64,000 nucleotides of DNA, taken from positions 3,658,001 to 3,722,000 of the forward strand of contig NGZR01000002.1 in the NCBI GenBank assembly GCA_002197995.1, in the 5' to 3' direction. The stretch is from Gaeumannomyces sp. JS-464 (Eukaryota; Ascomycota; Sordariomycetes; Magnaporthales; Magnaporthaceae). This document shows, one piece after another, positions 45,801 to 62,718 of this stretch. Made by a program: the position numbers and the translations under genes. How positions within the stretch are numbered: the stretch's first letter is position 1; every line of letters starts with the position of its first letter. Under the pieces are notes generated by a model. That model was not told the DNA's origin. It ran no database searches and was given only the letters and a program-made list of their open reading frames with translations.

Positions 45801-47816
45801 CCACCCGTCGGGGTCATTCGACCAGTGCGTGTTTCCGACAGGGGCCTGGGTGGTCCCGACCGCACGCATGTACCGTGTACCTGTGGGTTCCGCGGCCTGG
45901 CGCAATGGGGCCATTGTCATTCATGTCACCCGCGGTTCCCGTGCCTTCGCGGAATTGGCTGGCTTACTACAACTGGCGTGCTGGTGGTGACTGGGCTGGT
46001 CCAGCACCGTCCAGCAGCTTCTGCTCATTTCCCCCATTTTAGACAAGCAACACCTGCCCTTGCCAACCTTGGCTCCTGGAAACAGGGCCCAGGCCCCACC
46101 AATCCCCATAGTTTCGTGAGCCATCGCGCACGCTCTGGTGGCCTGCCACCCACACGCCCTCGCACCCCCTGGCCAGGACAGGCAGGGCCTGCCTGCACTG
46201 CATTGCATCCTCCACTCCCACTTGGACCTCTCCACCGCTCTTCTCCTTCCTTCCTCTTTCTTCCCCCATCCACCTTCTTCCTCCGCTTCACCGTTCATAA
46301 TCCATCCGTTGCAGCCTGTTCGATATATCTTAGCGTGGGCCGCCTCGGTCAAAGGACGGCACGCCTCCTTTTGCTCCGTTGCTGCGTCTCGCGAAGTCCG
46401 CCTCCCTCTTCCCTTCTCTGCCCTACCTCCTCCTCCCGCCTCGGCTTAGCCGTGTGTGTACAGAGTCTCGACCGCCGCCCTTTGTCCGCCCGCACCGCTC
46501 GTGACTCCATCGGCCTATTGATCCTCGCCGCCTTCCGCCCGCCGCCTCCGACGACGACGCACTCCGATTCCTCGGTCCGGTGCAACAATCTGACAAGAGC
46601 TGACGGCGAGCAAGCACACGACGCGCCAAGCCAAGCCAATTACACGACGAACTCAATACCTAGAGCAATCAAGCACGCAGCATAGCAACCGCACCTACAC
46701 GCTCTGATCACGCAATCGACCGCCAAGAGGGCAAATTGCCAACCTGCTCGCATCGCCGACGGCGACGACTTCTCCACTGCCAGCCATCCCCTGGCACCGA
46801 ACGCTCACGCTAGCCTACCTGGACGGCTCCATCTCGTTGAACAAGGGGGTTGAAGGGTCATCTCTTCAGCATCCTGTTCTACTGATACCAAAACCTTCAC
46901 GGATGTTCACAACCCAGATAAACCAGGTGTCGCAATAGCTGCCATCGATCGACACACGTCGGGACGGGAGTTTCTTGCCCACCTGGTATTCTTCATTCGG
47001 TGATTCCTCACCATCCTCGGCGCCCTCAGCAAGCAATCGATCCACCACTCTCATCCGGTTGCTTCTCGGCCGCCGACCCATTTCCTATCTCTCAGTCTCT
47101 ACACCTCGCTCCCGTCGAGTCATCGGTCGATCTCGGACACCCCTGCCTGTGCTCAACATACGAGTACTAGCACACATCAGGGTCGTCCCGGCTTACTCTT
47201 TGATCTGACGTATCTCCCTTTTGCCATCTCAACTCTAGCGACAACCATCAACACCACAAAAACATCAACGTCACTCTTTTGACCTCTTCGATGCTCTCGT
47301 AGCGTCGCCTATCCCCCCTTTTCGGACACTCGGTCCCTTCCTTCGACTGCCCGACCTGCTCGATTTATTTCCTTTGTTTGAAGCCTACAACCACACATCA
47401 CATATGAGCCTCTGACTGGAACGACTTGGAGTTTTCTTTTCTCTCTATTTTTCCGCTTGTTTTTGCGCTTTGGCGAATCTTCGACGATTGTAAATCTCAT
47501 CATCCTCATTCTCTCTTCTCGACTCCTTAAGTTCGCACACGCCCTTCGAGACCACGCCAACCCCGCGCCGATCTGCCACGCAAAGCCTCCAGACCGACGT
47601 CGACTTGTTCATCTACTTTGACACTTGTACCACTCGACACAGTGCCTCGGACCGCATCTGCCCGTGGCGGCATCTTAGACTGGGCGAACGGACCTTTGGA
47701 CAAAAGCTCTGCTGCAACTGTACCATCAGCAACATCATCGATAATCCTCTCCTCTCTTTTCCGCTCTAATCTTACGATACCCATTTTCTGTCTGTTTTCA
47801 TCATCAATTAATCGCC
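39830..47816. other. 8-kb gene-free divergent region, UTR4 / Ran1-like kinase
   Basis: No frame resembles a known protein; the longest (about 45636-46685) is a Pro/Arg/Ser-rich translation of C/T-rich DNA. The last 1.6 kb before the kinase (about 46200-47816) is strongly pyrimidine-rich on the plus strand, like a long leader, and contains several short upstream ATGs. The rest has no recognised element. Confidence 0.55.
46200..47816 (+). promoter_or_regulatory. Pyrimidine-rich leader/promoter of the Ran1-like kinase
   Basis: C/T-rich tracts of the kind found at fungal transcription starts extend to a few bases before the ATG (AATCGCC ATG). Leader versus promoter cannot be separated without RNA data. 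Confidence 0.45.
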
Positions 47817-49889
47817 ATGGAATGCCTGCGAGACAGGTTCGACATGGGCGTCGTCCTTGACGGACGCTACGAGACCATCTCGCCCCTCAACCATGGCTCT
47901 TTCGGCATGGTCTTCATGGCCAGGGACATCCGCACGGACGAGAAGGTTGCCATCAAGTGCCTGACCAAGAAGGCGGCTGCCGACGAGTACGGCTTCGACT
48001 TCGCCGTTGATGACAAGTCCGAGGAGCTCGTGCTGCACAAGCGCCTCGGCAGCCACCCCAACATCGTCAACCTGGTCGATGCTTTCGAGACGGACGCTCA
48101 CGTGTACCTAGTCCTCGAGTTCTGTGAGCGTGGCGATCTCTACGAGGCCATCCGCCATGGTTACGGACCTCTGGAGACGGAGCACGTCCGCAAGCTCATG
48201 CTTGAGCTTGTTGATGCCGTCGAGTACATGCACTCCAAGGGCGTCTACCACCGAGACATCAAGCCTGAGAACATCTTCCTCACCGATGGCGGCTCCCTGA
48301 AGCTCGGTGACTTCGGCCTGGCGACGACGGAGAGGTGGACGTACGAGGCCACTGTTGGCAGTGACCGCTACATGTCGCCGGAACAGTATGACTCAGCCGG
48401 TGCTGGCTACTCGCCCGCCCAGGCCGACATCTGGGCCATTGGCATTTGCCTGCTCAACGTCCTCTTCTCGCGCAACCCCTTCACCACCCCGACCGAGGCG
48501 GACCTACTGTTCCTGGACTTCTCGCGCGACAAGCAGTCCCTCTTCGATGTCTTTCCGTACATGTCCCAGGACACGTACGAGGTCATCGTTGAGTGCATGA
48601 ATCTTGACCCCAACAAGCGCTCTCTGGTTGGTGCTCGCCGTGCCCTCCGTCGTGTTGTTAGCTTCACCACCACGGACGAGGCCCTCGACGACTTCTGCTC
48701 CACGGATCGCACCGCCATGGCCTCTGCCAACCGCGAGCCTCTGCGCACTCCCTCGATCCAGAGCCCTGCCGTCGACACCGGTGCTTTCCCTTGGGCCAAG
48801 GCTCTGCAGACCACTGCCGCCAAGCCTATCCGCCAGCTCAGCATGATCCCCGACAACGAGAGCTACACCGAGGACCTCTTCTCCAAGTCGGAGGCCACCA
48901 CCTCTGACTGGTTCTCCAACGCTGGTCAGACCCCTTCGATGGACTTCGGTGCTCAACTCGAGCCTGGGTGCCTCCATCAGCTCCCTAGCCATGACTCATG
49001 CTCAGCAACACCGCAAGGTGTCGCCAATGGCTGGCTCGCTTCCCATCACCATGTCGCGGTCCCGCGCCCAGCCCGCCATGTCCACTGTCTTTGGTGGCCA
49101 CAGCGAGGGATTCTCCAAGAGCTGGAGCGACATGTGGGAGGAGGATGAGGAGGAGGAGGAGGCCAATGAGCGTGCTCGCCAGATGGCGAACCTGAAGGAG
49201 CTGAACTCGCGAACCTGGAGCCATGAGAGCAAGGTCATGGACGAGGACGAGGACGATACTCCTCGTCGTGGTCTGTCGCCGGAGACCAAGGCATCTACGT
49301 TGTTCATCTCCGACCATGTCCCGTCGATTGAGAACACCATCTCGAAGAACATCGACGACGACCTGGTCGCGGATGGCTTCTCTTTCAGGACGACGAGCCT
49401 GAGCCGGAGCGCAAGCAAGGACGTGGTCAGCCGCCACCGCCCGTCTTTCCGCGACCGGCTTCGCGCTACTCGCCACCACCAAAACGCAATGGAGGCGACA
49501 AGTGGGAGGCCCTTGGGCAACGACGACGTGCCTACTCGTCGACGAAATCGGCCAAGTCGGCCGTGAAATCACCGGAAGTGCTGTTCAAGAACAGCCGACC
49601 GAATCAACAGACTACTTTTGGATTTTCTACTTTGGGACACGGCGTTTGGGATTATAATATGGGACATCATCACTCCATCAACATGGCTGCTTCTAAACAC
49701 GCCAACGACAACATCAATACTGCTTTCAACAACCACGGCCCTCTGGGCAGCTATCAGCACCACGGGGCTAAATGGACCAGCCCCAAGGATCGCGCCAAAG
49801 ATGGCTGCCCTTGGAAGAAGGGCATTGACTCGAACTGGCGCCGTGACCGGCGCGCAGACCTCGAAGTCGAGTGGGTTGGTGGCTGGTAG
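47817..49889 (+). CDS. Ran1/Pat1-like Ser/Thr protein kinase, frame broken twice
   Basis: Kinase of the Ran1/Pat1-Ksp1-Sks1-Vhs1 group; fission yeast Ran1 represses conjugation and meiosis, and budding yeast members act in nutrient signalling. The kinase domain spans about residues 18-283: NHGSFGMVFMARD (P-loop), VAIK with Lys47, YHRDIKPEN with Asp147, GDFGLAT with Asp165, and MSPEQYD in place of APE. A long Ser/Asp/Glu-rich tail follows. The first frame is lost near 48949-48960, and the next stretch (SSLGASISSLAMTHAQQ, DMWEEDEEEEE) is one frame over. The original frame returns at the C-run 49440-49442 and runs to the stop at 49889 (SPPPKRNGGDKWEALG, CPWKKGIDSNWRRDRR). One surplus and one missing base leave total length divisible by three (690 aa). 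The kinase domain itself is intact. Confidence 0.9.
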
Positions 49890-55275: not shown

Positions 55276-55313
<38 letters not shown>

Positions 55314-57472: not shown

Positions 57473-58487
57473 CTAGTTCCTCTTCCCCGCGTTAGCCTTC
57501 GCGGCCTTGCCCTTGGCCTTGGCACCCTTGCCCTTGGCGCGCTTTCCCTGATGGTGAGGTGTACGGGTTTCGAGCTCAGCAGCTTCGTCCTCCTCGTGGT
57601 CATGGTTCTCCGTCACATCACGCTTGGCCCTCTTGCCCTTGGCGTTGGCCTTGGCCGCCTTGCCCTTGGCACCCTTGCCCTTGGCGCGCTTTCCTTGATG
57701 GTGGGGTGCACGGGTTTCAAGCTCAGCAGCTTCGTCCTCCTCGTGGTCGTGATCCTCCGTCAGGTCGCGTTTGGCCGCCTTGCCTTTGGCGTTTGGCTTG
57801 GCTTTGCCCGCCTTGCCCTTAGCCTTGGCCGCCTTGCCCTTGGTGCGTTTTCCCTGGTGGTGGGGAGAGCGCGCCTCGAGCCCGGAAACCTCCTCGTCCT
57901 CCTCGTGGTCGTGGTCCTCCGTCACGTCACGCTTGGCCCTCTTGCCCTTGGCGTTGGCCTTGGCCGCCTTGCCCTTGCCCTTGGCGCGCTTTCCTTGATG
58001 GTGGGGTGCACGGGTTTCAAGCTCAGCAACCTCGTCCTCCTCGTGGCCGTGATCCTCCGTCAGGTCGCGTTTGGCCCTATTGCCCTTGGCGTTGGCCTTG
58101 GCCGCCTTGCCTTTGCCCTTGGCACCCTTGCCCTTGGCGCGCTTTCCCTGATGGTGAGGTTCCCTGGCAACCAGCTGTGCAGGTGGAAAAGTCTTTGGTC
58201 AGTGACTGTGGCACAGTATCATAAAATACGGGGTTAGTTGATGCTTACCTCGACACTGGTGTCAACAACGGGGAATGCTAGTGCCGGAGCGGCAAGTGCC
58301 ACGAGGGCGCCCTATGTGATGAAGTTTGTCAGTCCAATCCTCTTTTGATATTCACAACCTGTGCAGTGATTCAACATACAACATGTCTGCGGGCAAGCCC
58401 GGAGGGACCACCAAGATCAAAGCTGGAAACGGCCGAGGCGGCGACCAGGCCAGTGACCACGATCTTGATAAACGAAGGGGTGTACAT
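57473..58487 (-). CDS. Secreted Kex2-processed repeat protein, candidate RiPP precursor
   Basis: Exons 58487-58380, 58311-58249 and 58174-57473 give 290 aa. The N-terminus is hydrophobic (FIKIVVTGLVAASAVSS), with a second hydrophobic run from exon 2 (GALVALAAPALAFP). Splicing at a weaker donor nearer the ATG would merge these into one conventional signal peptide, so the exact secretion signal is uncertain. The mature part is five imperfect repeats of 46-54 residues. Each carries an invariant PHHQGKR. Units 2-5 are preceded by an acidic segment (DLTEDHDHEEDE type), and each is followed by a Lys/Ala/Gly spacer such as AKGKGAKGKAAKANAKGKR; most spacers end in AKR. The Lys-Arg pairs are typical Kex2 sites. 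There is no Tyr, Phe, Trp or Cys in the repeat region. Divergent from the UstYa-like gene; a modified-peptide precursor is an inference from that pairing. Confidence 0.8.
57476..58174 (-). repeat. Five imperfect in-frame tandem repeats, period about 138-162 bp
   Basis: The acidic-segment starts lie near 58066, 57928, 57766 and 57616. Units differ in spacer length and by scattered substitutions, while PHHQGKR is unchanged in all five. Confidence 0.88.
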
Positions 58488-61400
58488 TTTGAATGGAAGG
58501 CTGGCCGGCAGCTAGCGTATAAGCTTAAAAATAAGAAAGAAGGAATGGGAAGAAATGAAACCACCAGGGAAGGATAAGGAGAGAGAGAGGCTGATGATGG
58601 TCGGTCCACCATGGCCTGACTTTGGTGAGCAAGTTCGCGCCCTTTATATTCGTCTTGGCCCTCGGCTGATGGCTGGAGACGTAAACTGGGGGGCCCCCTT
58701 GGTCGAGGCGGACGCAAGGTGCCTGCCACGAGAGGAAGGCCCGCTTGGGACAACAGTCTCATCTTTGATGTGGCTCCCCAGATGGGCCCGTTTGCATCAA
58801 GTTCTTGCATCGGCCGGGCATGGGAAGGAGGAACAAAGGATGTCCGGCACGCAGAGCTGGCGGATATCCTCATCACGGGGGGGGGGGGGGGGTGCCTGCT
58901 GGTCACCCTAAACCAAACAGGGCAAGGCTAGTGGACAGGGGTGGCACACTCGAGGGAAGTCGACGCGGCTGGAGTCTCCCTGAGGCCCAGGTCCATCCTT
59001 GGCAAGGATGTCCGCGAGAGTGAAGCGCCAACGACGGCGCCCCGCAGCCGTCGGTCTCAGGCAAGGGTCCTAGCCTCGACGACTCCCGCCGACTATCCGG
59101 ATCCAGCGACCCGTTCGCGTAGTCCCAAAAAAAGACGAATAAGAGAAATAACGTGTGGATGCTGATGCCTGAAACTCCGTACGCCAGCCGGAAACTACCA
59201 GTAGGTCTGATTCTTGACAGAAGGCGTTGCATTGGGCCTTGGAGTTGTGGCCTGGGATCCCTAACCATATCTCTTGACAGAGAGTTTGACAGACGGCTGA
59301 CTGACGTAGGCGCCGGGCCAAAATAAGATGCCTGCCGGATATGCGGCCAGGGGTGGGGAGGGCTTCCACGCAGATTGGCTTTTCTCGGATGGCGATTTGG
59401 ACATCCTCTCGGCTAAGCTTAAAACAGCTGCACACACGCACATACGCACACACCACAGGGGCCACAGCCCCCAAAAGCGGCTCAAAGGCCGAGCGGTGTG
59501 CTCCAGGGAGCCCCGCCACCAATGGATCAGTGGGAGACGGCAGATCCGGCACGGGATGGTCTGTGGCTTGGGACATTAGCCAGCGAGCAGCACTGCGGTG
59601 CCGCTGGGTTACGTGGTCACGAACCTGGATGCGCATAGTGATACCGCCCCTTGGGACGAGAGCGAGGAGGATCGACATCTACTACGTGGTTGGTCACTGT
59701 TTCTTTTTCGGCTCCTGCAGTGCAGATCTGCATCCAGGGCTCGATCACCTCGGGTATACCTACGGACAATACGTACGATATTTCTCTGTTGGCCCCAAGA
59801 CGACGCGGAAGGCAAGGGGAAAAAGAGAGAGGCATAAAGACGCAAGGGCCGAAGATGGGCAGCGGCGGCGAGAGCGGAGGGGGGCTCCCATTGGCTGCCG
59901 GTTGTTGTCGTCTCGGCGGCTGAAACAGCACACTTCTCCAGCGCTGTTACGGGTCCGCCGCACTAACGTGACTCAGGGCGGCAGAGCCTCTGACTGGGCC
60001 GGCCCTGGATCGTTGTGTGGGGCTGCCGCGTGCGCCAAGACTTGAAACCTCTGGATTCGACCGCCCGCCTGGGAGGAAGCACCTCGTTTCTTTGTCGGGG
60101 CGGGAAATTTCCCTGCGACAGATCGCGACATGGAAATCCTTCCCTCTCTGTGCTTTCCCCCCCAATGTCTGTGGTGGTGGCGGTCGTGGTTGAGAGGCCA
60201 AAAGTAAACAATGGTGGACGCCTTGGCGATCGCTGATCAGCATTGGCAGGCCGCTTGTCAACGCCAATCCCGCACGTTAAGCTTTCGGCGGACCCTTTTG
60301 GCAGCAGAATGCCGGCCAAACAAACATCGCGATTGGCTTTTGGTTTGCATTAGCACATTAGAAAATACAATACCCCCAGAGCAACCAACAATAGCGCCCA
60401 GCAGCCACTGACTGGCCCAGCCGAACCGCCAGCCAAGGTGCGACAGCCGCTGTGGCTTTTCCTCAACCCGCAGCATCGACAACCAACGGAAAGGCACCGA
60501 AACAAGGCCAGTCGCCGGCCTGTCTCAGCTTGCCATAAAAGACGGCCAGGGGGGAGGATGGGAAAAAAAGGGAGAGTACGAATACCCGATGCTCGACGAC
60601 ACGGGAGGCAATTAATCATGGGTTATCCGGTCCCACCCTTCGTCCCTTCTCTCCCCCTCCTCTCGCCCCTGCGCTAAGCCCCTTGTGCCTTGCAGTCGCG
60701 AGACTCCATTTGATGTTGGGCGGCAGCCTGTGTGTGTGCGTGGCATGCGAATGGACCCCCCGGCAAAAAATCCCCATTCTTTTGGTTCGGCCGAGTGTTG
60801 ACCCCTGAACCTCCCATCCAGATTCGAGATTCCAAATGCCAAGCATTTCGTTCCCGCTTCGAGGACCCACCCACATGCAACCAGCCGCCCCGCAAAGGTT
60901 GCTTGAATCTAAGGTGACAGGGTCAGGGGCGCCTTCAAGGGGGACGTCGATGTCCGTCCCACTTGCAAAGAGTCTCAGAATCCAAAGGCCGAGGGCGAAA
61001 AGAACCGGAAGAGACGTCGACGGGGCAAGGAAGGGCATGGGCAGCTCTTGACACCGCCTCGTCTTTCCCTGGCTGTTGGTTGCTTGGTTGGCCTCGCCTC
61101 GCCCCTTTTTCTTACCCATAGTTACGCAACCCCATGATCGTCCTCATACCTGGACAGTACGCCTCCTCCTCCTCCTCCGGGTGACTCGCGCTCATCTTTG
61201 CTGATCCCGTCTTGTCATATCGCTTAAGGTTACGAGATAACTGTTGCATTGCGGGGTGGAGACGTTGTTTCCCAACAATAGCCAGTGCTTCTGTTTGAGA
61301 TCCGTCTGGTCTCTATCCTTCTTTCCGTTTGCGCGGTCCGGCTGGCCCTCTTCGTTTTTTCTCGACTCTCTCCTGTTGCTCCTGAGCCTCTGTCCTCCCG

Positions 61401-61603
61401 TTGTCTTCCCTTCCTTTGGGCTGCGCCTTGGTTGACGGAAAAGACCAGCTGGCTTTCCTTCCGTCCTCCGCCATCCCGCCAAGACATCTCTTCTACTATC
61501 TATACCTTTCTTTACTTCTTCTCCGCGCCAGGTGCGCTATCGACTAATATTCTACTAATTTTGCACCATTGGTTCAGCCTCTCTCTTTCTCTTCCTCCCA
61601 AAC
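58488..61603. promoter_or_regulatory. 3.1-kb divergent region between repeat precursor and UstYa-like gene
   Basis: No frame resembles a biosynthetic enzyme. It contains a G16 run at 58877-58892. A C/T-rich tract lies at about 61300-61600, just upstream of the UstYa-like start. It is suitably placed for joint control of the two genes, but no operator is recognised. Confidence 0.45.
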
Positions 61604-62718
61604 ATGCATAGCTACCCTCCCAACATGTCGGGCGTCTACCACTCAGTCCCCCATGATGAGGAAGGCAGCCTAAACGGGGAGAAGGAGGGTATCAGGACAA
61701 TGAGGGTGCGAGGGGCTTTGTCCGAAGTGATAGAACGCGGGCGTACACACTGGACCTGGATCGCCCATGCCGTTCTGCTCTCGGCGTCCCTGACAATGTT
61801 CACGCTGTCCCTGTGCTCGAGGGGCGGCAAGGTCGACGACCTAACATTTACGAAGAAGTATTCCTCTTGGTGTAAGTGCGCGCGAGACCTCAGCGCCAGC
61901 ACCTTTCGCCCTGGCCCTCTGTCAAGTGGTGCTGTCTTTCGTTGTGCTGGAGTTTTTGTATGTGTTGCTGACACCAACTCTTGCAGCACCCGCCGCGCCC
62001 GCGGTCAGGTACGAGACGGTCAAGTTCAACCTCACACCAGTGGTCGATAGCCCATATGTAGGCTACGGCGTGGAAGTCGACAAGGCATGGGACTACATTG
62101 CCAACGATGGTGAGAAGAACCGTCGGCCCCTGGCCTGGGCTCCCCTCGGTCGCTGGCTCTGACTGACGTTTTGCTCTGTTCGGATCTGTAACAGTGGGCG
62201 ACCAGATGATCTCGGAAGAGGAGGCGCTTCGCATGGGGTCGCCGCTCAACTCGCTAAAGGTCAAGGACCCCAAGACGGGCAAGGAAGGCTATAGGGTCGG
62301 CATGGAGGTCTTCCACCAGCTTCACTGCCTCAACCTGCTGAGGCAGGGCATCTATAAGGACTATTACAAGGATCTCCACGGCGACGTTGGCGACGCTTCC
62401 GGAAAGGCCCTTCACAGCCACCTCGGTGAGTCTCCATGCGCCACCTGCCGCCTGCATTTTGCGGCCGTTTTGACACCTGTCTGCATGCTGACCCCGAGGA
62501 AAATTGTAACCACGATAGACCACTGCATCGAGGCGCTGCGCCTGAACCTGATGTGCCAGAGTGACATCGGCATCTTCACGTTCCGGCTGTTCCCCGAGTA
62601 CGGCCTCGCCGACGACGACTGGTGGCCCGACTTCAGCACCAAGCATACGTGCAGGAACTTTGAGGACATCAGGAAGTGGGGCAGGGACAACACGGTGTCG
62701 TGGGACCATAACGCATAG
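61604..62718 (+). CDS. UstYa-family (DUF3328) protein, candidate peptide-modifying oxidase
   Basis: Exons 61604-61871, 61987-62109, 62195-62425 and 62519-62718 give 273 aa, a normal family length. A cytosolic N-terminus of about 48 residues is followed by one membrane anchor (WTWIAHAVLLSASLTMFTLS) and a lumenal domain. The family landmarks are present: SPYVGYGVEVDKAW at about 111-124, FHQLHCLNLLRQ at 170-181 and HLDHCIEALRLNLMC at 206-220. These hold the two HxxHC motifs needed in UstYa and relatives. In dikaritin clusters such proteins oxidatively cyclise core peptides; other members hydroxylate or halogenate. All four exon junctions are in phase with canonical sites. Two start codons are possible (61604 or 61625). 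Substrate unknown; the nearby repeat precursor is the natural candidate. Confidence 0.93.

What the first reader, a model, noticed from the sequence alone, without database searches (positions are those of the whole stretch)
57473..62718. Possible new fungal RiPP locus: Kex2 repeat precursor beside a UstYa-like oxidase
Seen: a secreted protein with five repeats, each ending in an invariant PHHQG before Lys-Arg, and a divergent UstYa/DUF3328 gene with two HxxHC motifs 3.1 kb away. Known: ustiloxin-type (dikaritin) precursors have acidic repeats with the core placed directly before Kex2 KR sites, and UstYa proteins modify those cores. Inference: the two genes form a RiPP pathway. The core lacks Tyr/Phe/Trp, unlike ustiloxin, phomopsin or asperipin cores, so the chemistry would be unusual, possibly on His. 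A tailoring P450, methyltransferase or transporter is not visible, which weakens the case or means the cluster runs past 64000.
Basis: partly seen in the sequence, partly recalled or inferred. Interest (0 to 1): 0.92.

Follow-up and report, generated by a model that had tools for sequence, protein, structure and literature searches.

The report
Pheromone-style di-histidine peptide precursor with oxidase
A fungus closely resembling the cereal-root genus Gaeumannomyces carries a five-repeat protein, likely secreted and likely cut and trimmed like a mating-pheromone precursor into peptides that would begin with two histidines, beside a gene for a predicted copper oxidase that would modify them, so a peptide pathway is likely here, but the peptide probably starts, not ends, at the histidine pair.

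Summary
A minus-strand three-exon gene (58487-57473) encodes a 290-aa protein with five PHHQG-KR units. A head-to-head four-exon gene (61604-62718) encodes a UstYa/DUF3328 protein with both HxxHC motifs. The pair is kept in Gaeumannomyces tritici (consecutive tags GGTG_01713/GGTG_01712).

Relatives change the reading. In the window protein and 14 relatives, all 58 HH pairs sit 0, 2 or 4 residues after an Arg, and the gap is always X-Pro/X-Ala dipeptides: the Ste13 (pheromone-type) trimming signature. Mature peptides therefore likely BEGIN with His-His. "HHQG then KR" occurs only in the two Gaeumannomyces sequences (9 of 58).

The UstYa protein is not divergent, and the flanking ORFs scanned look like housekeeping genes. 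Umemura 2020 already catalogued di-histidine KEP types G-3 and G-8 with DUF3328 genes nearby (57 of 64; 45 of 49). The kind is known; product and chemistry are not.

I read it as a likely His-centred peptide pathway joining pheromone-style maturation with a copper-family enzyme, which surveys mostly keep apart (exceptions exist). Against it: a Magnaporthiopsis homolog lacks HH, only 4 of 58 cuts are dibasic, and no product is known.

The parts
57473..58174 (-). Precursor exon 3: five (x)PHHQG-KR units, Lys/Ala/Gly-rich stretches and acidic spacers; the stop codon ends at 57473
58249..58311 (-). Precursor exon 2: GALVALAAPALAFPVVDTSVE
   Evidence: GTAAGC...CAG intron behind it; GGTG_01713 aligns across the junction
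58380..58487 (-). Precursor exon 1: start codon and hydrophobic (signal-peptide-like) N-terminus
   Evidence: GTATGT...CTGAC...TAG intron behind it; signal peptide judged by eye
58140..58159 (-). Unit 1 (first in the protein): P-HHQG-KR, preceded by R-E
57987..58006 (-). Unit 2: P-HHQG-KR, preceded by R-A
57846..57865 (-). Unit 3: P-HHQG-KR, preceded by R-S
57687..57706 (-). Unit 4: P-HHQG-KR, preceded by R-A
57540..57559 (-). Unit 5: P-HHQG-KR, preceded by R-T
58488..61603 (.). Shared intergenic region between the two divergent genes; 8 of the 13 ORFs of at least 80 aa lying wholly in it were scanned and match no Pfam family
61604..61871 (+). UstYa exon 1 (most aligned orthologs start at the second ATG, 61625); holds the predicted transmembrane helix
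61987..62109 (+). UstYa exon 2
62195..62425 (+). UstYa exon 3, with the first HxxHC (HQLHC, 62314-62328) and the start of the second (62419-62425)
62519..62718 (+). UstYa exon 4, rest of the second HxxHC (HLDHC, 62519-62526) to the stop codon

Best explanation
The locus encodes a five-repeat precursor, predicted to be secreted, whose repeats are likely cut after arginine by a kexin-type protease and likely trimmed by a Ste13-type dipeptidyl peptidase to peptides that would begin His-His, and the head-to-head neighbour gene encodes a UstYa/DUF3328 protein that is predicted to oxidise those peptides in the Golgi with two copper ions. Shown: the two genes and motifs, adjacency in G. tritici, the R-(X-P/X-A)n-HH rule in relatives, one kexin-type and two DPPIV-type genes in the genome, and an intact HxxHC pair in a widely conserved UstYa protein. 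Inferred: the cuts themselves, the mature product (in Gaeumannomyces HHQG if the KR behind it is also used, otherwise HHQG with a Lys-rich tail; in many relatives of the HHKGKGKK type), the partnership of the two proteins, and the reaction. The acidic spacers (DxTEDHDHEEDE...) would balance the charge of the cationic units during secretion.
For: R-(X[P/A])0-2-HH holds for 58 of 58 HH pairs in the window protein plus 14 relatives (gap 0: 8, gap 2: 43, gap 4: 7); for 40 of 40 in the 11 relatives outside the query alignment; against 176 of 2120 other positions in the same proteins. Of the 17 homologs found (read up to E = 10) P0130, P0132 and P0134 were dropped because they have no HH; 5 of the 14 kept have E above 0.001, and without these it is 42 of 42 (recounted). 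Gap spellings that do not occur before HH in the query (DP, DPSP, EPAP, NAEP, DPEP, EPEP, DPEA, EA, VP) keep the rule. P4 before the cut is L/I/V/M in 52 of 58, against 30 of 105 other Arg. Le Marquer 2019 (PMC6339444, passages) gives repeated XA/XP dipeptides as the Ste13 motif. PMC9769878 (passages) reports Ste13-type trimming and apparent cleavage after single Arg in expressed basidiomycete KEPs. Kexin 1 place, DPPIV_N 2 places in this genome. Adjacent tags in G. tritici. Di-His KEP types with DUF3328 within 15 genes: 57 of 64 and 45 of 49, against 22% of all KEPs (PMC7329392). DUF3328 is reported as a binuclear copper enzyme family with a lumenal HxxHC pair (PMC12435403, abstract and part 1 of 3); the same six residues are invariant or nearly so in 45 homologs and lie on two helices in a model with one long N-terminal helix. 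Own UstYa loci: 10 matching stretches at 7 places in 53 Mb, so a neighbour within about 4 kb by chance is about 0.1% (my arithmetic, after the fact).
Against: Only 4 of 58 HH units have a dibasic KR/RR at the cut; published Kex2 sites in KEPs are KR, RR and to a lesser extent KK. A Magnaporthiopsis poae homolog (P0132, E 0.056, very similar N-terminus) has KKNKNKKKK where HH would be. The UstYa search gave 401 homologs, also in genera absent from the G-3/G-8 lists such as Fusarium and Xylaria, so the enzyme may have another substrate. Overall HH content of KEPs is hardly higher near DUF3328 genes (5.7% against 3.9%). Gaeumannomyces is not in the G-3 or G-8 genus lists. Adjacency was checked here in one other genome only, by tags. 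The alpha-pheromone-like gene of this same genome has plain KR sites without X-P/X-A. The homolog search words included REPHH-like strings and only about 8,000 candidates were scored in each search, so the sample leans towards the rule. No expression or mass data.
Confidence: 0.5

Rival explanations
1. The peptides are released as linear, unmodified N-terminal His-His, Lys-rich peptides (hormone-like, antimicrobial or metal-binding), and the UstYa neighbour acts on something else.
For: A Ste13 signature is typical of linear pheromone-type KEPs and is reported absent from ustiloxin, phomopsin and epichloecyclin precursors (PMC6339444 passages). UstYa homologs are far more numerous than precursor homologs found here (401 at E <= 0.001 against 17 at E <= 10), though short repetitive precursors are harder to find.
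Against: Adjacency in G. tritici and 102 of 113 published di-His KEPs of types G-3 and G-8 with a DUF3328 gene within 15 genes. 17 of 76 homologs of Ste13-type basidiomycete KEPs also have DUF3328 neighbours (PMC7329392 section 8), so the two signatures do not exclude each other.
Confidence: 0.25
2. The Lys/Ala/Gly-rich segments are the functional part (polycationic secreted peptides) and the His units are only spacers.
For: Lys-rich tails follow HH in most units of the relatives; the M. poae homolog keeps the REP and Lys-rich parts but has no HH.
Against: Tails differ in length and sequence among the five window repeats while HHQG is fixed at five of five with synonymous codon changes; one weak homolog (P0135, E 1.5) has HHTEAQIAAK after the same R-(xP) context.
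Confidence: 0.13
3. A classical dikaritin: the core is the residues just before KR (ending PHHQG), cross-linked as in ustiloxin.
For: Signal-peptide-like N-terminus, tandem repeats, KR sites, UstYa neighbour.
Against: No Tyr, Phe or Trp in the window repeats; KR directly behind HHxG in only 9 of 58 units, both Gaeumannomyces sequences; Ste13 signature reported absent from dikaritin precursors; no tailoring genes among the flanking ORFs scanned.
Confidence: 0.07

Closest known systems
KEP types G-3 and G-8 (di-histidine KEPs), Umemura 2020, PMC7329392
   Same: Tandem repeats with a di-histidine motif accompanied by Pro and a DUF3328 gene within 15 genes in 57 of 64 and 45 of 49 cases
   Different: Gaeumannomyces is not in their genus lists; the repeat logos are in a figure and the member table in a supplement that I could not see, so type membership is not tested; sections 6, 7 and 8 of that paper do not mention a Ste13 signature for these types
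Ascomycete alpha-pheromone precursors (Kex2/Kex1/Ste13)
   Same: Repeats, cut after Arg, X-A/X-P dipeptides before the mature peptide
   Different: Core is His-His plus Lys-rich, mostly single Arg with aliphatic P4, UstYa neighbour; 98.6% of 216 putative fungal pheromone genes and all 227 yeast alpha-factor-type genes lack a DUF3328 neighbour
Dikaritins (ustiloxin, phomopsin, asperipin-2a)
   Same: Repeat precursor next to UstYa/DUF3328
   Different: No Tyr core; no tyrosinase, P450, FMO or small-molecule methyltransferase among the ORFs scanned; core position differs
DUF3328 copper enzyme CctR (cyclochlorotine), PMC12435403
   Same: Membrane helix and HxxHC pair on two helices
   Different: CctR acts on a non-ribosomal cyclic peptide

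Membership tests
KEP (Kex2-processed repeat protein) | N-terminal signal peptide | tested here: inconclusive
   Hydrophobic N-terminus read by eye; no predictor was available
KEP (Kex2-processed repeat protein) | Near-identical repeats separated by Kex2 sites (KR/RR) | tested here: met
   Five units each with KR behind HHQG, and KR before the four acidic spacers
Ste13-type (pheromone-like) KEP | X-A/X-P dipeptides between the cut and the core | tested here: met
   5 of 5 window units have one X-P; 50 of 58 units in all have one or two dipeptides and 8 have none, with no unit breaking the pattern
Ste13-type (pheromone-like) KEP | Dibasic Kex2 site directly before the dipeptides | tested here: not met
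   Dibasic in 0 of 5 window units and 4 of 58 in all; otherwise one Arg with mostly aliphatic P4. So it works like, but is not filed as, a pheromone-type KEP
Dikaritin RiPP | UstYa/DUF3328 gene beside the precursor | tested here: met
   adjacency in G. tritici by tags
Dikaritin RiPP | Tyr-containing core for ether cross-link | tested here: not met
   0 Tyr, Phe or Trp behind residue 60 of the window protein
Dikaritin RiPP | Cross-linked product | not testable with these tools
   needs mass spectrometry
UstYa/DUF3328 | PF11807 match and two HxxHC motifs | tested here: met
   E 7.6e-31 for the window DNA; 171 bits for the G. tritici ortholog; motifs
UstYa/DUF3328 | Binuclear copper and oxidase activity | not testable with these tools
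   Shown for CctR in PMC12435403, inferred here
KEP type G-3 or G-8 | BLAST clustering with the published type members | not tested
   Type tables are in supplements that could not be read; resemblance only

The most novel reading that the evidence does not exclude
A filamentous-fungus-wide class of His-His peptides, matured like a mating pheromone and paired with a dedicated copper DUF3328 enzyme: the free N-terminal His-His either is oxidised by the enzyme into a His-centred RiPP without Tyr, Phe or Trp, or carries copper itself, making the pair a secreted copper-peptide system (a fungal counterpart of copper-binding peptide natural products) kept as a two-gene core unit and not as a toxin cluster.
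Probability: 0.2. Interest if true: 0.85.

Novelty: new variant of a known kind. Interest (0 to 1): 0.6.

Why it matters
Published surveys mostly separate linear, Ste13-trimmed hormone-like KEPs from cyclised, UstYa-modified toxins; the exceptions they list are 3 of 216 putative fungal pheromones and 17 of 76 basidiomycete homologs with DUF3328 neighbours. Here both signatures meet in one gene pair whose kind is widespread. If the pair works as proposed, there is a RiPP-like chemistry on histidine, with a sharp prediction for the mature N-terminus that mass spectrometry can test directly. It would also give a natural ribosomal substrate for a DUF3328 copper enzyme. For genome mining, a single-Arg boundary would explain why dibasic-only rules place the core at the other end of the repeat.

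Tried and rejected
Chance adjacency was considered and judged unlikely (7 UstYa places in 53 Mb; published enrichment). A larger cluster beyond 64000: 16 ORFs of the 42 of at least 170 aa listed in L012-L014 were scanned. (10 ORFs): FA_hydroxylase (sterol-desaturase-like by eye), DUF2015, lactate/malate dehydrogenase, TRAPP, PIGO/PIGG (2 ORFs), RRM, HEAT, two without a family. (6 ORFs): Cnd3, E3_binding with biotin/lipoyl, RRM (just under the cut-off), three without. In the window, 12 ORFs of the 56 of at least 190 aa listed: (8 ORFs) gave CorA (2), Bmt2 (an rRNA methyltransferase), a HAD hydrolase (just under the cut-off), kinase, amino-acid transporter and RMP1 (2, one under the cut-off); (4 ORFs) gave Gti1/Pac2, tyrosyl-DNA phosphodiesterase, a PNRC motif and one without. 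Unscanned ORFs remain, so absence of tailoring genes is not proven. A pheromone control in the same genome found an alpha-pheromone-like repeat gene with plain KR sites; it does not show the dipeptide signature. Solved structures: no sequence relative of UstYa (best E 0.15) and no fold match at E <= 0.001. Literature for PHHQG-like strings gave three unrelated papers. I found no paper that joins a Ste13 signature with DUF3328 for di-His KEPs in searches. One search was a wrong family guess (KRE1) and tells nothing. Papers: PMC7329392 sections 6, 7 and 8 and passages; PMC12435403 abstract and part 1 of 3; PMC6339444, PMC9769878, PMC2515848 (one reference entry only), PMC12048977, PMC7099791 and PMC11905480 passages; all others search listing only.
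Full report
What is there. The window lies in a 53-Mb, 34-contig genome whose two genes of interest are closest to Gaeumannomyces tritici: UstYa 94% identical to GGTG_01712, precursor 58% over 78% of its length to GGTG_01713. The precursor gene runs on the minus strand from 58487 to 57473 in three exons with ordinary fungal introns (GTATGT..CTGAC..TAG and GTAAGC..CAG); the G. tritici protein aligns across both junctions. It gives 290 aa: a hydrophobic N-terminus, then five units, most of the form [acidic spacer]-LETR-xP-HHQG-KR-[Lys/Ala/Gly-rich]-KR. The PHHQG-KR pattern occurs five times, never in 100 shuffles, and HHQG is kept with three codon spellings. No other copy of the precursor was found in the genome: the three matches all lie in this gene. 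The UstYa gene runs the other way from 61604 (or 61625) to 62718 in four exons (273 aa). Between the two starts are 3.1 kb; 8 of the 13 ORFs of at least 80 aa lying wholly there were scanned and match no Pfam family.

The pair is real and not local. Consecutive locus tags in G. tritici show the same neighbourhood; this is the only other genome in which I could check it. The UstYa protein has 401 homologs at E <= 0.001 (best 120 listed), among them Pyricularia, Colletotrichum, Fusarium, Botrytis, Exophiala and Thelotrema. 11 of 11 of these that I tested match this locus better than the other own UstYa loci held (L002-L008, which stand for 5 gene places; one further place was not held), so they look like orthologs. 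His and Cys of both HxxHC motifs are invariant (H171, H174, C175, H206) or nearly so (H209, C210) in 45 sequences (P0110 lacks the second motif, apparently through its gene model).

The relatives of the precursor tell where the peptide is. Two searches found 17 homologs (read up to E = 10); each search scored only about 8,000 candidates, so others may be missed. Fourteen contain HH and were used; P0130, P0132 and P0134 have none and were dropped. Across the window protein and these 14, every one of 58 HH pairs is preceded by Arg at a distance of 0, 2 or 4 residues, and the gap always consists of X-Pro or X-Ala dipeptides (EP 21, DP 8, none 8, AP 6, SP 4, DPSP 2, and one each of TP, QP, VP, EA, EPAP, NAEP, DPEP, EPEP, DPEA). 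For the 40 pairs from proteins outside the query it is 40 of 40; at other positions of the same proteins the same context occurs in 176 of 2120. With only homologs at E <= 0.001 it is 42 of 42. The search words came from rows with REPHH-like strings, so some bias is built in, but the four-residue gaps and the DP, EA and VP forms do not stand before HH in the query. A gap of 0, 2 or 4 built of X-P/X-A is what a Ste13-type dipeptidyl peptidase removes after Kex2 (PMC6339444 passages). The residue four before the cut is aliphatic in 52 of 58, against 30 of 105 at other Arg; an aliphatic preference of Kex2 at that position is recalled, not from a call. Only 4 of 58 cuts are dibasic. Apparent cleavage after single Arg was reported in expressed KEPs (PMC9769878 passages). 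The genome has one kexin-type and two DPPIV-type genes. So the mature peptide most likely begins His-His. What follows differs: HHKG in 34, HHQG in 12, HHTE in 6, others in 6 of 58.

What the enzyme would do. A 2025 paper reports DUF3328 proteins as membrane-bound copper enzymes whose HxxHC pair forms a two-copper centre in the organelle lumen (PMC12435403, abstract and part 1 of 3). The model of the G. tritici ortholog (mean pLDDT 76, pTM 0.62) has one long N-terminal helix (39-74) and both motifs on helices 168-183 and 200-221, in line with that. Precursor and enzyme would meet in the same compartment. The reaction on these peptides is not known. Since the window repeats hold no Tyr, Phe or Trp, His or Lys/Gln would be the targets, or the His-His peptide may itself carry copper.

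What is already known. Umemura 2020 noted di-histidine motifs in KEP types G-3 and G-8, accompanied by P, with DUF3328 genes within 15 genes in 57 of 64 and 45 of 49 (PMC7329392), against 22% for all KEPs. That is the closest known kind and weighs for the partnership; membership of the window gene in these types could not be tested, and Gaeumannomyces is not in their genus lists. The overall HH rate near DUF3328 is only slightly raised (5.7% against 3.9%), which weighs against a general rule. The split between pheromone-type KEPs and DUF3328 neighbours is strong but not absolute in that paper: 3 of 216 putative fungal pheromones, and 17 of 76 homologs of Ste13-type basidiomycete KEPs, have such neighbours. 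So the combination seen here is unusual, not without precedent. A Gaeumannomyces genome paper reports fungal RiPP clusters as one of the main classes; the passages seen do not name this locus (PMC11905480).

Against the reading. A Magnaporthiopsis poae homolog with a very similar N-terminus has Lys-rich stretches where HH would be (P0132). UstYa homologs occur in genera that are not in the published di-His lists. The same genome's alpha-pheromone-like gene has plain KR without dipeptides, so it gives no positive control for Ste13 trimming in this fungus. Flanking ORFs scanned on both sides give housekeeping-type families or none (28 ORFs scanned of 98 listed), so there is no further tailoring gene in what I scanned. 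No expression, peptide or deletion data exist here.

Verdict. Observation confirmed; interpretation partly supported. It is most likely a two-gene peptide pathway of the di-histidine KEP kind. The new points are the pheromone-type trimming signature and the predicted His-His N-terminus next to a copper-family oxidase.

Noticed in passing
L018 (G000:C30 about 1255530-1255878, minus strand): Alpha-pheromone-like repeat precursor with QNGCRYRGQSCW-type units flanked by plain KR sites, without X-P/X-A dipeptides (name by recall)
   Followed up: partly
P0125 (Mytilinidion resinicola homolog): Two alternating unit types; one is bracketed by Cys (CVRDPHHKGKAC), so its His-His peptide could end in Cys
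   Followed up: no
P0132 (MAPG_08358, Magnaporthiopsis poae): Homolog with a very similar N-terminus in which both units have KKNKNKKKK where His-His would be, while REP and KR remain
   Followed up: partly
P0130 (Coprinopsis marcescibilis, a basidiomycete): Weak homolog (E 1.6e-4) with repeated ETREPRRGG-type units: the same R-xP context but Arg-Arg in place of His-His
   Followed up: no
L012:1128-1934: FA_hydroxylase gene (sterol C5-desaturase-like by eye) is the nearest family hit downstream of the UstYa gene among the ORFs scanned; probably housekeeping
   Followed up: partly
window 47745-49563 (+): Protein kinase ORF ends at 49145 while another frame stays open over 48847-49563; an intron or frame change, not resolved
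   Followed up: no
window 55277-55312 and 58877-58892: Runs of 36 A and 16 G; simple repeats that may be assembly-sensitive
   Followed up: no
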